A stretch of 64,000 bases of DNA from positions 22,412 to 86,411 of IMG/VR virus record IMGVR_UViG_3300008451_000399. One strand, given 5' to 3'. Shown one piece after another: positions 28,038-62,700 of the stretch (position 1 is the stretch's first letter; every line of letters begins with the position of its first letter). The position numbers were made by a program, and so were the translations under genes. The notes under the pieces are model-generated. The model was not told the origin of the DNA and made no database searches. It saw nothing but the letters and a program-made list of their open reading frames with translations. Source of the DNA: a virus.

Positions 28038-28114
28038 TGGTGTACCGTGTGTGATTTGAACACACGACCTTGGTGTTATGAGCACCCTGCTACTGACCTC
28101 TGAGCTAACGGTAC
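28038..28114 (-). tRNA. tRNA with anticodon CAU (Met or Ile)
   Basis: 77 bases with CCA encoded. Acceptor GTACCGT pairs with ACGGTAC; D-stem GCTC/GAGG-like; TPsiC arm with TTCAAAT loop. The anticodon stem GGGTG/CACCA has a possible mismatch at the base, and the loop reads CTCATAA, giving CAU. An elongator Met or a lysidine-modified Ile tRNA are both possible. Confidence 0.8.
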
Positions 28115-28116
28115 AA

Positions 28117-28194
28117 TGGTGACACTGGCAGGAGTCGAACCTGCGACCTATGGAGTAGAAATCCACTGCTCTAAATCCTCTGAGCTACAGTGCC
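28117..28194 (-). tRNA. tRNA-Arg (UCU)
   Basis: 78 bases with CCA encoded. Acceptor GGCACTG pairs with CAGTGTC (one G-T), anticodon stem GTGGA/TCCAT and loop TTTCTAC give anticodon UCU, reading AGA. GCAGG/CCTGC forms the T stem. The AT-rich phage uses AGA, so the tRNA supplements the host. Confidence 0.9.
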
Positions 28195-30825: not shown

Positions 30826-33528
30826 TCAATGACATGTAGCCCAATTCGTCCCAATCATGTAACCTGCTGTCAGTTCCACATTCAACTTGTAATACTCTCC
30901 AGCTAGTCTTACAGCTTTAGTTGCAAGCTCCCCTGCACGATTATATGCTACATAGTACATCTTATCTGTGTGCATGACATCACTCCACACTCTGTCAGTT
31001 TGTGCCTCTTTAAATGCTTTAGCAGCAGCTTCTGCCTTCTTTTCGGCTTGCTTTCTCAACTCTTTATCACTACCTTCATACTCTATTTTAAACGTCTTAA
31101 ATTCAACGTCAGAGCGTCTTACCTCGTACTGCGCTTCGTCCTTGTAATTGTACACTCGTTACGTGTTTCGTTATTTTCATAACTAATTGGACTATATCAC
31201 CACCCTGACAGGGTGCTCACCGTTTCGAGTTCACTTGAACCCTACTCCATCTCTGGATAGTCTCTGGGCATTTAGGAAGCAAGCTTCCATTTAGCACAGT
31301 GGTTAGCGTAGCTCCCGCCTTAGCTTTCCCTGTTTAGATGAGTTATCATTTACAGATTACTCTGTAAAGCCACAACAATGTTTATGGTACGCAATAAGCT
31401 GTTGACAGAAGTTTTTATTCTTCCAATCGTCCTTAAAGAAATCCACACTAAGCCCTTCATCCTTCAGCATCTTATCGTGGAGCACCATCGCACGTTTGGC
31501 AGCAATAACACCACAACTTTGAAACTGACTATTAACTACATTTCCTTTAGATCGAATAGGTAGCTTACGTCCATCAATACCGAGTAAGAATTTCTTCTGC
31601 CCAGTAGTCTCCCAATACTTCTGCATGTTCTCTTTCAACTGCTTTAGAGGATATGCTTGAGTCCAGAAAGCATTAAAAATAATATTACCTGTTTCTAAGT
31701 CGCAACCTACTGTCTTCGCTACTCGCTTTGGTTGAGCATTATAACTGCAACCGTACTTTACATTCTTAGCTGTTCCACGAGGAAATGGTCTTCCTAGTAA
31801 TTCAGTAATACTTGCAGCAAGCACAGAATGACAGTCATTAGGTTTCTCTGCTGTCAAGCTGTAACCGTACTCCTTGCCTCCTTCATACTTGTAAACAAAG
31901 GAAGCTTCAACTTTAGCCTCAAGGCTGTCGAAATCAAAAGCCATCTGAAGGAACCCGTCTTTAACATCCACTCCGAACAAACTGCGCATCTCCTTACCAT
32001 AAATACTTGTCGTTCTGCTAATATTTGCAACTTTACGGTGCTTGAACCTAGAAGTCCCAGCTCCGCAAGTATCAGCAGGTGTTGGAATCCTATGATCTAA
32101 GTTCAATCGCGGCTCACTTAGAAAACCCTTCTCAGGCTCTTCGTCATCTGCGTCAGGGTCTACACCTCCTCCAAGAATACTGTTACGTCTGTGAGTGTAC
32201 GTGAAGTAATCAGACACCAACTTAGCATGAGGAAACTTATCAGCAATCTCTAGCAAGTTAGGGTCAATCTCTTTCTCTTGCCCTACTGTCAGTGTCGGGT
32301 TAGTATAAACCTTCAAAGGACGTGAGATGTCATGCTTCATTAACTTCTCTCGCAGCTTCTTAGGAGTTGTCTCCAACTCATCACAACGGTCTTTACAGAA
32401 AGGACTACTTAAAGTCTGCTCTACGTACTTCTCAACTGCTGCTTCAAATTTCTCTCTACTAATCTTTTTCTTCTTTGAGTCACAAGTAAGGTCACGCTCC
32501 TTGTACTGCGTTGGAACCCATTTAAATTCTTGCACTAGCCACCCTTTAATGTGAGAGCTGTCTGCTGCACTGCTACTCAACTTACCAGCTTCGGTTGAAA
32601 TTAAAGGCTCACATGGAATTGGTAATGCCATACTCTTATCAAAGATTGTTGCTACCCACTTTCCATCTACTTCCTCTAGAGTTCCATTGTGCTTGCTAAT
32701 AAAGTTTTTAATGTGTGTACTAGGTTGCCCACTTTTCAAGAATTGAGTATTAGGTGGAGTGTACTCTTTCTGCTTCGTCTTCGGTAGAGACTTAGGTGGA
32801 ATAAGAGGTTCAACAATGTCACGTATTGTATCCATCTTTTCGTCTAAATCTCGTACACAGTCTTCGGCTTTATCTTTATCAAACCAGAAGCCTCTGTGCT
32901 GTTGTCGTGTAATGATTTCAGCAACAGCTTGTTCCAACTTAAAAGCATCAGTCCAATTCCAATCACCCCACTCTTTCATCAGAGCTTTATAGACTAAGTG
33001 ATTAACTTCTACGTCTCGAATGTTATACACAAGCATTTCTGGATGGTACTGTTTAAATTCATCTCCGTCAGAAGCATCCTTTCCAATCAGTCCCATCTCA
33101 ATAGCCTTGCTTCGCCAGTCAATCTTCTCAAGTCCTAGTGTCTTACCCCAAGCATCAATACTATGACCTCCATAGCGGTCTGGATTAAGAGCTTTTGACA
33201 AAATTAGGGTATCCCATATCTCTACAGGCTTACCATCTATCTTGTCAATGTCTCCTATTTCGTAGTCAATACCTAAGTACAATTTAATAGCCAACAAGTC
33301 AAAGTTGATTTGGTTGTGAGCAATAACCATTGTAGCTTGTTTAAAGAAAGCTGGAAACTTAGTTTTCACTTCGTCTTCTACGAATGTGTAAATCTTGCCA
33401 GTGTCTATGTCTTTAGCAGCTATACAGTGAATCTTAAACGTGTCTAAGAGTTTGTAAGGGCTGCTAGTATAGTCTACACTCGTGTGGTCGATGAAGCCAT
33501 TGCTCTCAATATCCCATACAATTCTCAT
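30826..33528 (-). CDS. DNA polymerase, T7 gp5-like, split by a group I intron
   Basis: Exon 1 is 33528-31384 (715 codons), exon 2 is 31140-30826 (104 codons plus stop), spliced length 819 residues. The N-terminal 3'-5' exonuclease shows DIESNG (Asp6/Glu8), IAHNQINFD and NIRDVEVN. Polymerase motif A is FDFDSLEAKVEAS, motif B is KNVKYGCSYNAQPKR, and motif C is rebuilt only by splicing: LIAYH from exon 1 plus DEAQYEV from exon 2 gives HDE. The end MIGTNWATCH matches the T7 gp5 C-terminus. Unspliced, the upstream frame runs into the intron and stops after KHCCGFTE, making a truncated inactive enzyme. ATG 33528 has AAAGGAG upstream. It copies phage DNA with gp4-like primase-helicase. Confidence 0.93.
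31141..31383 (-). other. Group I intron in the DNA polymerase gene (243 bases)
   Basis: The intron begins after the U of exon CAT and ends in G (ACAAG) before exon GAC. P1 forms between exon CCAU and internal guide GUGG (31370-31373) with the conserved U-G at the splice site, extended by AAC/GUU. P2 is the perfect hairpin at 31349-31368. Core elements are R (CAGAGACTATCC, 31255-31266) and S (GATATAGTCC, 31189-31198), which pair as P7, and stem-loops GGAAGC/GCTTCC (31275-31288) and CACCC/GGGTG (31201-31215). It has no internal reading frame long enough for a nuclease. Confidence 0.88.
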
Positions 33529-33530
33529 AA

Positions 33531-34355
33531 TTACTCCTTTATAAATCCATAGTATTTAAGTTCTGCTTCTTCTCTTGCTTTTACCGCGCTATCATAACTG
33601 TGGAAAGTCCCTAAGTGGATTAACTTGTCCTCTGCACCAATAGCTGCAGTCCATGTGTTAGGTTTTACACAGTATACTCCTGTCCTACCAGATGTATTAT
33701 TTATTCTGATATTGGTATTGTAACCCTGCATATTTTTTGAGTCCCAGACACAATTTTCTTTGCAGTAGTTTCCATTGCAATCTTTTCTTTCTATAGTAAG
33801 ACCTTCTGGGCAATCACCCATGTCTTTGTAGAACTGTTCAAAATTATTTAACCACTCATCACATACTTTAATACCTCTTGCTCCGTACCTGTGATAATTA
33901 TCCTTATTAGGGTCATAACACCTTTGCTTCATTGCAGCCCATATTCCATACTCTTTTGTGCCTGTCTTTCCGTGTGTCTTATTTACTTCTCTAACAACTT
34001 CATCTCTAAAACATCCGCACGAAGTTGTGTGCCCTGAAGTTAATGCTATAGTTGTAGGATAACTGGTGTTACCACAGTCACATATGCACTCCCATTTAGT
34101 ATTAGCAGCTCCTGACTGTGAAACTCTCTTTACCACGGTTAGGCGGTTAAACTTATCCCCTGTAGATATTACTGCTTTCTTCTTAGACTTTAACGAATTA
34201 TTACGGATACTCTTGTAGTCCGTTATGCGTGTTACGCCTGAATCAAGAAATTGAATCTTAACACCTCCAGTTTTTACGCTGCAACTAATTATCTCTAGTA
34301 TAACGTAAGATTCGCCTCCGTTTGTTATTCTAATATCGCCTACTTTAAAACCCAC
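33531..34355 (-). CDS. HNH-type homing endonuclease with zinc and AP2-like domains
   Basis: 274 residues. The middle (WECICDCGNTSYP, TSCGCFRDEVV) holds a treble-clef/zinc ribbon, then GIWAAMKQRCYDPNKDNY and EGLTIERKDCNGNYCKENC form the nuclease-like part, and SGRTGVYCVKPNTWTAAIG is AP2-like DNA binding. It lies directly upstream of the intron-split polymerase, two bases from its start, with its own promoter at 34381-34409. It may mobilise the intron (see findings). Confidence 0.8.
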   Translation of the reverse strand: MGFKVGDIRITNGGESYVILEIISCSVKTGGVKIQFLDSGVTRITDYKSIRNNSLKSKKKAVISTGDKFNRLTVVKRVSQSGAANTKWECICDCGNTSYPTTIALTSGHTTSCGCFRDEVVREVNKTHGKTGTKEYGIWAAMKQRCYDPNKDNYHRYGARGIKVCDEWLNNFEQFYKDMGDCPEGLTIERKDCNGNYCKENCVWDSKNMQGYNTNIRINNTSGRTGVYCVKPNTWTAAIGAEDKLIHLGTFHSYDSAVKAREEAELKYYGFIKE

Positions 34356-55280: not shown

Positions 55281-55405
55281 GGGAGTCAGAGCTGATATTA
55301 TATTGGTTATTTACAAATTATAATTGGTACAATGTAGATGGGTGCATATGTGCAACAATTTATGAATTATGATGTAAATATGCATCCACAAACTAAGGAG
55401 AAAGT

Positions 55406-55657
55406 ATGGAGAAATTGTATTATAATGGGAAGGAAGTGGTTGCTATTACCTCTCCTAATGATATGTCAAGTTGTCAAGGTTGTGTGTTTGATGATAAGAT
55501 TGTATGTGAGCTTTTATATATGGTGCAGAGTGGAAGCTATGAGAAGAAGTGGAGTTGTGTTAAGAAGGACAAGTACATTATTTATGTTAATAAGGAGAAA
55601 TGGATATATGAAGAAAATTTACCAAACAAGCCATACTGTTGGCGGTGTGAGAACTAA
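55406..55657 (+). CDS. Small Cys-rich hypothetical protein
   Basis: 83 residues behind AAGGAGAAAGT. SPNDMSSCQGCVFDDKIVC and YCWRCEN give Cys pairs, likely a zinc fold. It overlaps the homing nuclease gene by 50 bases. Unknown. Confidence 0.6.
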   Translation: MEKLYYNGKEVVAITSPNDMSSCQGCVFDDKIVCELLYMVQSGSYEKKWSCVKKDKYIIYVNKEKWIYEENLPNKPYCWRCEN

Positions 55658-56150
55658 AACTCGTGAGAGTATTTTGTGGTATGGTATTAAGAATCGTTGT
55701 TATGGTGGTAGACATAAGAGTTATGCTGGATGCTCAATGTCAGAAAATTTCCTAGATTTTCAGTATTTTGCTGAATGGTGCAACAATCAGATTGGATGGA
55801 ATGACGATGGTTGGCATTTAGATAAAGACTTCTTAATAGAAGGTAATAAAATCTATGGCGAGGATACTTGCTTATTTGTACCAAGAGTTGTAAACAACAT
55901 CTTCTTAGACACTCCTGGGAATAGTAGTGGACTCACAGGTGCTGTATGGATTTCTCATAGTAATAAGTACCAAGCTAGATGCAATGAGTTTGGTAAGCAA
56001 TACACCTATGGATTGTACTCTACAGCAGAAGAAGCTCATAATGTGTGGGTTGAGAAGAAGAATGAGTATGTTCAGAAAGTGGCTGAAATGTATAAGGGCA
56101 GAGTCAGGGATGAAGTGTACCAGAGGCTTGTGAATTTCAGGGCAAAATAA
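55608..56150 (+). CDS. Homing endonuclease-like protein (HNH/AP2 type)
   Basis: 180 residues from ATG 55608 (AAGGAG upstream; the longer upstream frame lacks a site and overlaps a better-supported gene). WYGIKNRCYGGRHKSYAGCS, then WHLDKDFLIEGNKIYGEDTC form the nuclease-like part, and SGLTGAVWISHSNKYQARCN a DNA-binding AP2-like part. Same family as 61766-62350. Starts inside the previous gene in another frame. Confidence 0.75.
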   Translation: MKKIYQTSHTVGGVRTKTRESILWYGIKNRCYGGRHKSYAGCSMSENFLDFQYFAEWCNNQIGWNDDGWHLDKDFLIEGNKIYGEDTCLFVPRVVNNIFLDTPGNSSGLTGAVWISHSNKYQARCNEFGKQYTYGLYSTAEEAHNVWVEKKNEYVQKVAEMYKGRVRDEVYQRLVNFRAK

Positions 56151-61765: not shown

Positions 61766-62350
61766 TCAATCAGTAATTTCTACAACATAATTGTTCAAGG
61801 CTTCAATCACTTTAGGATGAACAAGTCCTTCATATTCTTTTGCTAACTGTTTTGCTAAGGCTTCTTTGTAGGTTTTGTAGACAAGGAATGCTTCTTCTGG
61901 AGTGTTGTAGTGCCCTAGTGATTTTCTAATACTTCCTTCATTTACACGTGATGAAAACTTGTTCATTGATTTGTTGAAACTTACACCGATAGGGAATTCA
62001 CCCCTCGAAGTTACACTTTTAGGTAAGAAAGCATTGAGTCTAGCTGGAATAAAGAAACACGTACTTTCAGAATATTGCTTATTTCCCTTGAATACAATAT
62101 CCTTATCTAGTTGATACCCTTCTACACCAAACATTACCTGATTGTGGCACCACCTAGCAAAGAACTGAAAATTCTTAAAATTTTCAGAGACTGAACACCC
62201 AATGTAACTAGGATGCCTTAATTGACATTTGCTAGAATAGCATCTTTGCAGCATACCAATCCATAGTGCATATTCCTTAGTGTTAATTCTGTCTATGCTT
62301 GCAACGTAATTACCTTTCTCATACACACCGACTCCATGCACCAACTTCAT
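61766..62350 (-). CDS. Homing endonuclease-like protein (HNH/AP2 type)
   Basis: 194 residues from ATG 62350 (AAAGGAGGGATT upstream). ALWIGMLQRCYSSKCQLRHP and GYQLDKDIVFKGNKQYSEST match the nuclease-like part of gene 55608-56150, and the C-terminus is an AP2-like module (FPIGVSFNKSMNKFSSRVN). It is at the 3' end of a minus-strand operon. Same mobile family as the gene at 55608-56150. Confidence 0.7.
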   Translation of the reverse strand: MKLVHGVGVYEKGNYVASIDRINTKEYALWIGMLQRCYSSKCQLRHPSYIGCSVSENFKNFQFFARWCHNQVMFGVEGYQLDKDIVFKGNKQYSESTCFFIPARLNAFLPKSVTSRGEFPIGVSFNKSMNKFSSRVNEGSIRKSLGHYNTPEEAFLVYKTYKEALAKQLAKEYEGLVHPKVIEALNNYVVEITD

Positions 62351-62700
62351 AATCCCTCCTTTAACTCTAAAATAACTCCTGCTGCAGCATATGCACTCCA
62401 CGTAGGATTGTTCTCCACAAAATACTTCATTGACGTATAGTGGCTGTTGAAAGTCTCAACCTCCACACCAGCCTTCCTAAGATATTTACGTAGAATCTTC
62501 GCAGAAACACCCTCATCTCGTGAAGGCATTCTCACTTTATACTTAGAAGCCAATCCTTCCCAATATCCCATATCAAGATAGCTTGTCTTGTACAAATGTT
62601 TGTTAGATTGAATATCTAGCTGTTTCTGCTTTCGTGCTTCTTGTGCCTTAGCTAAAGCTTCTGTACGTTGCTCTGCTGTCATGTTTGTTATGAATGTCAT
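62347..62700 (-). CDS. Hypothetical protein
   Basis: 117 residues. Lys/Glu/Gln-rich helical N-terminus (EALAKAQEARKQKQLDIQS) then a mixed domain. It overlaps the homing nuclease ATG by four bases. Unknown. Confidence 0.6.
   Translation of the reverse strand: MTFITNMTAEQRTEALAKAQEARKQKQLDIQSNKHLYKTSYLDMGYWEGLASKYKVRMPSRDEGVSAKILRKYLRKAGVEVETFNSHYTSMKYFVENNPTWSAYAAAGVILELKEGL

What the first reader, a model, noticed from the sequence alone, without database searches (positions are those of the whole stretch)
30826..33528. DNA polymerase split by a group I intron inserted inside the catalytic HDE motif
Two minus-strand frames of a T7-type polymerase are separated by 243 bases. Exon 1 ends LIAYH at 31384, exon 2 starts DEAQYEV at 31140, so splicing rebuilds His-Asp-Glu of motif C exactly between codons. 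The exon ends with U, the intron ends with G. The intron shows P1 (CCAU with GUGG, U-G at the site), a perfect P2 hairpin, R (CAGAGACTATCC) and S (GATATAGTCC) core elements. Unspliced, the protein ends after KHCCGFTE and lacks motif C, so splicing is needed for replication.
Basis: partly seen in the sequence, partly recalled or inferred. Interest (0 to 1): 0.9.

Follow-up and report, generated by a model that had tools for sequence, protein, structure and literature searches.

The report
Group I intron in phage polymerase
A bacterial virus's DNA-copying enzyme gene is interrupted, in the middle of its active-site code, by a short self-splicing RNA; this is real and intact by every sequence test made here, but the same kind of intron at the same codon is already known from other phages.

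Summary
Bases 31383-31141 (minus strand, 243 nt) are a group I intron: Rfam RF00028 scores 77.2 bits (cut-off 50). It splits a family-A DNA polymerase between the His and Asp codons of motif C (HDE). Joining the exons gives an 819-aa protein that aligns through the junction with uninterrupted relatives (76-85% identical). Thirteen other phage sequences found here carry an insert at exactly this point. Near-identical full and empty sites (L022 against L014 and L016) confirm the boundaries, and compensatory changes support P2, P3, P7.1, P7.2, P8 and P9. P7.1-GUA-P7.2 points to subgroup IA2. Both exons are under strong purifying selection, so the gene is used and splicing is needed for a complete polymerase. 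Splicing itself was not shown.

It is not a new kind. The site is E. coli Pol I His881; IA2 introns at 'site 881' were reported in T7-like phages PhiI and W31, and genes split at this site lie in public phage genomes (KLEP7, SPA01). What differs is the host (an 86-kb, non-T7-like phage record) and the lack of an endonuclease gene in the intron. In passing, relatives carry a group I intron in motif A and a probable intein in motif B.

The parts
31384..33528 (-). Exon 1 of family-A DNA polymerase (residues 1-715: exonuclease part, motifs A and B, up to His of motif C)
   Evidence: Pfam DNA_pol_A 34.4 bits; phrog_17 DNA polymerase 1.1e-92; tblastn to phage polymerases
31141..31383 (-). Group I intron, IA2-like, 243 nt, no endonuclease gene inside; 5' end AAACAUU, 3' end ...UUACAAG
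   Evidence: RF00028 77.2 bits; homologous introns at the same site; covariation
31370..31387 (-). P1: exon CCAU plus intron AA (31387-31382) paired with UUGUGG (31375-31370); U.G wobble at the 5' splice site
   Evidence: Sequence; pairs kept in 11/11 aligned introns; present in the minimum-energy fold
31349..31368 (-). P2 hairpin UUUACAG/CUGUAAA
   Evidence: Perfect 7 bp; five pairs show changes on both sides among relatives
31255..31266 (-). R element CAGAGACUAUCC: P7 5' strand GACUA (31262-31258) and P7.1 5' strand UCC
   Evidence: GACUA pairs with UAGUC at 31194-31190; conserved 11/11
31189..31198 (-). S element GAUAUAGUCC with P7 3' strand
   Evidence: GAUAUAGUC conserved in all aligned introns
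30826..31140 (-). Exon 2 of the polymerase (DEAQYEV... residues 716-819, stop codon ends at 30826)
   Evidence: phrog_16667 DNA polymerase I: exon 1 matches model 1-113 and exon 2 matches 114-229, that is, the two exons abut in the model
33531..34355 (-). Free-standing HNH endonuclease gene ending 2 bases before the polymerase start; possible neighbour element, not part of the intron
   Evidence: phrog_374 HNH endonuclease 5.1e-75; also upstream of intronless polymerases L008, L015 and L029

Best explanation
The 243 bases are a compact, intact group I intron of subgroup IA2 in an essential replication gene of a phage with an 86-kb record. The transcript folds, the exon's CCAU pairs with the intron's guide GUGG, guanosine attacks after that U, and exon 1 then attacks after the terminal G of the intron. 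This joins His and Asp codons in frame and restores motif C of the polymerase. Unspliced RNA gives a 723-aa protein that lacks motif C. The intron is patchily distributed among related phages at one fixed site, so it behaves as a mobile element. This copy has no endonuclease of its own and probably arrived by recombination, or derives from a copy that lost its HNH gene. Shown: anatomy, homology, exact site, covariation and selection on both exons. Inferred: splicing, its necessity in infection, and the route of arrival.
For: Rfam full-length hit well above cut-off. Inserts at the identical H|D site in L002 (KLEP7), L017, L018, L020, L022, L030, L031, L034, L035, L039, L067, L130 and L166 (SPA01). 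Covariation: 90.9% of cells paired against 36-50% for slid controls; 26 of 47 pairs with changes on both sides. Intronless close relatives L006, L007 and L008 read through HDE. Full site L022 against empty sites L014 and L016 shows a clean insertion. 10 of 10 intron-bearing genes (the window's and the nine fetched by protein search) carry TACCAT at the site against 5 of 28 intronless ones. Purifying selection on both exons: pN 0.10-0.18 against pS 0.71-0.95. Presence needs 11 changes on the polymerase tree, no better clustered than shuffled labels. E. coli His881 equivalence.
Against: No RNA data. P4 of this copy carries a bulged A, and P10 is only 3 bp. The third P10 pair is compensated here (G-C instead of A-U) but is broken in SPA01 (sequences, compared by eye), so the P10 support is weak. 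Related sequences are not independent, so the Fisher p-value and the shuffles overstate significance.
Confidence: 0.95

Rival explanations
1. The intron is degenerate and no longer splices; the polymerase works as two separately translated chains.
For: A GTG start exists in frame just upstream of exon 2 (31155). No splicing was measured.
Against: No Shine-Dalgarno-like sequence before that GTG. All core helices are intact. The exon-1 chain would end inside motif C. Both exons are under strong purifying selection. The family is conserved across many phages.
Confidence: 0.04
2. The gap is not an RNA intron but a sequencing error, a translational bypass or an intein.
For: A bare frame break alone would allow it.
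Against: 243 extra bases with a full group I fold and homologues elsewhere rule out a simple error. Inteins lack stop codons, and the ninth codon of this insert is an in-frame TAA. Bypassing does not explain the RF00028 match and the covariation.
Confidence: 0.01
3. The ORF-less intron is mobilised in trans by the free-standing HNH endonuclease encoded directly upstream of the polymerase (collaborative homing). This would add to the main explanation, not replace it.
For: An HNH gene ends 2 bases before the polymerase start (33531-34355). A related HNH gene also lies upstream of intron-bearing L017 and L022.
Against: The same upstream HNH occurs beside intronless polymerases L008, L015 and L029. 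On the tree the two traits do not go together (in 11 independent pairs the HNH trait differs in about 2, in both directions). The HNH target is unknown.
Confidence: 0.12

Closest known systems
Group IA2 introns in DNA polymerase genes of T7-like phages PhiI and W31 (site 881; 2004 report, as cited in PMC3428280)
   Same: Same host enzyme family; same insertion residue in E. coli numbering (His881); same P7.1-GUA-P7.2 mark of IA2.
   Different: Those encode an HNH endonuclease in P6a; this one has only a short P6a hairpin. Different phage group. Their sequence was not in the collection, so base-level identity of the site rests on the paper's numbering.
Introns at the same codon in Pseudaeromonas phage KLEP7 and Pseudomonas phage SPA01
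   Same: Exact site, same 5' end (AAAUAA...UUGUGG), same exon ending UACCAU.
   Different: 839 and 792 nt long, with HNH endonuclease genes inside.
SPO1, SP82, Bastille and Pf-WMP3 DNA polymerase introns (site 674; I-HmuI family)
   Same: Group IA2, family-A polymerase.
   Different: Different site, in the fingers region; they encode endonucleases (PMC3428280).
Aeromonas phage MQM1 polymerase with two putative introns (PMC10410586)
   Same: One of its inserts begins AAAC...UUGUGG after a His codon and is followed by DEIQLQV, so it appears to sit at the same H|DE site.
   Different: Podophage polymerase; introns only suggested by annotation in that paper.

Membership tests
Group I intron (Rfam RF00028) | Covariance-model score at or above the curated cut-off over the full core | tested here: met
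   77.2 bits against 50, model positions 1-253
Group I intron (Rfam RF00028) | U.G pair at the 5' splice site and G as last intron base | tested here: met
   CCAU|AAA...GUGG and ...ACAAG|GAC; the wobble is kept in 11/11
Group I intron (Rfam RF00028) | P3/P7 pseudoknotted core kept in relatives | tested here: met
   P3 and P7 100% paired in 11 sequences; P3 has 3 pairs with changes on both sides; P7 is invariant
Group I intron (Rfam RF00028) | Guanosine-dependent self-splicing | not testable with these tools
   Needs RNA
Subgroup IA2 | P7.1 and P7.2 joined by GUA (criterion in PMC3428280) | tested here: met
   UCC AGAGAU GGA-GUA-GGGUUC AAGU GAACUC
PhiI/W31 site-881 polymerase introns | Insertion at E. 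coli Pol I residue 881 | tested here: met
   H715 of the spliced protein aligns with E. coli H881 and T7 H653; the paper gives site 881
PhiI/W31 site-881 polymerase introns | HNH homing endonuclease gene inside P6a | tested here: not met
   243-nt intron with a short P6a hairpin; no frame of 60 aa or more lies inside it
PhiI/W31 site-881 polymerase introns | Sequence relationship to the PhiI/W31 introns themselves | not tested
   AY769989 not held

The most novel reading that the evidence does not exclude
The polymerase active site of this phage group is a shared landing zone in which each of the three catalytic motifs is invaded by its own class of self-removing element (group I intron in motif A, probable intein in motif B, group I intron in motif C), and small endonuclease-free introns at motif C spread between phages with the help of endonucleases encoded elsewhere, such as the HNH gene next to the polymerase.
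Probability: 0.12. Interest if true: 0.5.

Novelty: new member of a known kind. Interest (0 to 1): 0.27.

Why it matters
It extends a known intron site (His881) from T7-like phages to a broad group of larger phages, with about 13 full and 30 empty alleles that could be used to study intron gain, loss and spread without an intron-encoded endonuclease. Any annotation that leaves the intron out would report a truncated polymerase without motif C.

Tried and rejected
P10 covariation as strong proof: the window has G-C where ten relatives have A-U, but this is one event and SPA01 breaks the pair, so it counts only as weak support. Linking the upstream HNH to the intron: rejected as a rule, because it also sits beside intronless genes. 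Comparing directly with the PhiI record: not held. The inserts at residue 594 were first taken for introns; they are open in frame, start with Cys and mostly end before Cys, so they look like inteins.

Full report
What is there. On the minus strand a 723-codon frame (33528-31357) and a second frame (31140-30826, open from 31155) encode the two parts of one polymerase. Removing 31383-31141 joins them into an 819-aa protein with ...CQQLIAYHDEAQYEV.... PHROG family 16667 (DNA polymerase I) shows the break cleanly: exon 1 matches model positions 1-113 and exon 2 matches 114-229. Pfam finds DNA_pol_A in exon 1, and the nearest solved structures are T7 DNA polymerase.

The insert is a group I intron. 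Rfam's Intron_gpI model matches over its full length at 77.2 bits, E 6.9e-18 in the window, the only such hit in the 86-kb record. A free-energy fold of the single strand gives P1, P2, P4, P5, P6, P7, P7.1, P7.2, P8 and P9 unaided. P7.1 and P7.2 are joined by GUA, the mark used for subgroup IA2 in PMC3428280.

Homologues. A protein search of viral contigs gave 40 polymerase relatives. Of these, L017, L018, L020, L022, L030, L031, L034, L035 and L039 have an insert at exactly the same place. The closest relatives, L006 (85%), L007 (78%) and L008 (76%), have none. KLEP7 (L002), SPA01 (L166), L067 and L130 add further occupied sites. Most of these introns are 223-266 nt with no gene inside; KLEP7 (839 nt), L034 (808 nt) and SPA01 (792 nt) carry HNH endonuclease genes. 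Rfam calls eight of the short ones at this site above its cut-off.

Structure across relatives. On 11 introns, a 47-pair structure read from the window copy is paired in 90.9% of cells (slid controls 36-50%), with changes on both sides at 26 pairs (shuffle mean 14.9; 0 of 500 shuffles reach it). P3, P7.2 and P8 are 100% paired; P1 and P7 are invariant. P9.1 does not align well between the window and the rest, and P4 to P6 were not counted because the alignment slips there. P10 is 3 bp; the window's change from A-U to G-C is compensatory but single, and SPA01 does not pair at that position.

Full and empty sites. L022 (intron) and L014 or L016 (none) are about 90% identical around the site, and the insertion falls cleanly between CAY and GAY. 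All 10 intron-bearing genes counted (the window's and the nine fetched by protein search) have TACCAT before the intron, against 5 of 28 intronless genes (Fisher p about 6e-6, inflated by relatedness). This fits the need for U.G in P1, or co-conversion. On a 44-row polymerase tree the presence of this intron needs 11 changes, no fewer than for shuffled labels, which fits repeated gain and loss.

Function of the gene. Against L006, L007 and L008 both exons show pN far below pS (exon 2: 0.12-0.15 against 0.71-0.95). So the downstream exon is still selected as protein, which is expected only if it is joined to exon 1 or otherwise used. There is no ribosome-binding sequence at the possible GTG start of exon 2. 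Splicing itself remains an inference.

Known or new. His715 here equals E. coli Pol I His881 and T7 His653. PMC3428280 states that the PhiI and W31 introns are 'at the site 881' and that the polymerase introns it compares belong to IA2. MQM1's published genome already annotates putative introns in its polymerase, and the sequence suggests that one of them is at the same H|DE site. Therefore: new member of a known kind, notable for the phage group and for lacking an endonuclease gene.

Neighbouring elements. A free-standing HNH gene ends 2 bases upstream of the polymerase start. Related HNH genes sit at the same spot next to polymerases with and without the intron, and the two traits do not track each other, so a role in moving the intron is possible but unsupported.

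Noticed in passing
L005, L031, L038, L041 (polymerase residue about 594, motif B): An in-frame insert after KYG, starting with Cys and open throughout; in L038 and L041 it ends ...N before CSYN. Weak Hint and LAGLIDADG matches below cut-off. Probably an intein in motif B of the same polymerase family.
   Followed up: partly
L004 4696-5094 and L035 4760-5574 (polymerase residue about 536, motif A): Group I intron matches inside motif A, just after DFDSL (Rfam 61.6 bits in L004; 34.6 bits, below cut-off, in L035). L035 carries introns in both motif A and motif C.
   Followed up: partly
33531-34355 (-), 55338-56150 (+), 61766-62401 (-): Three free-standing HNH endonuclease genes in the window.
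   Followed up: partly
28038-28194 (-): Two adjacent tRNA genes, Met (CAT) and Arg (TCT).
   Followed up: no
L062, L075, L085, L112, L127, L145, L151, L153: P1-like intron starts (CAT|AAA..TTGTGGC) in frames of other, unidentified genes; possibly the same intron family elsewhere.
   Followed up: no
L172 1054-4377 (Aeromonas phage phiA009): Polymerase frame followed by an HNH-like gene and a short frame, as in an intron-split gene, but of a more distant polymerase; site not resolved.
   Followed up: partly
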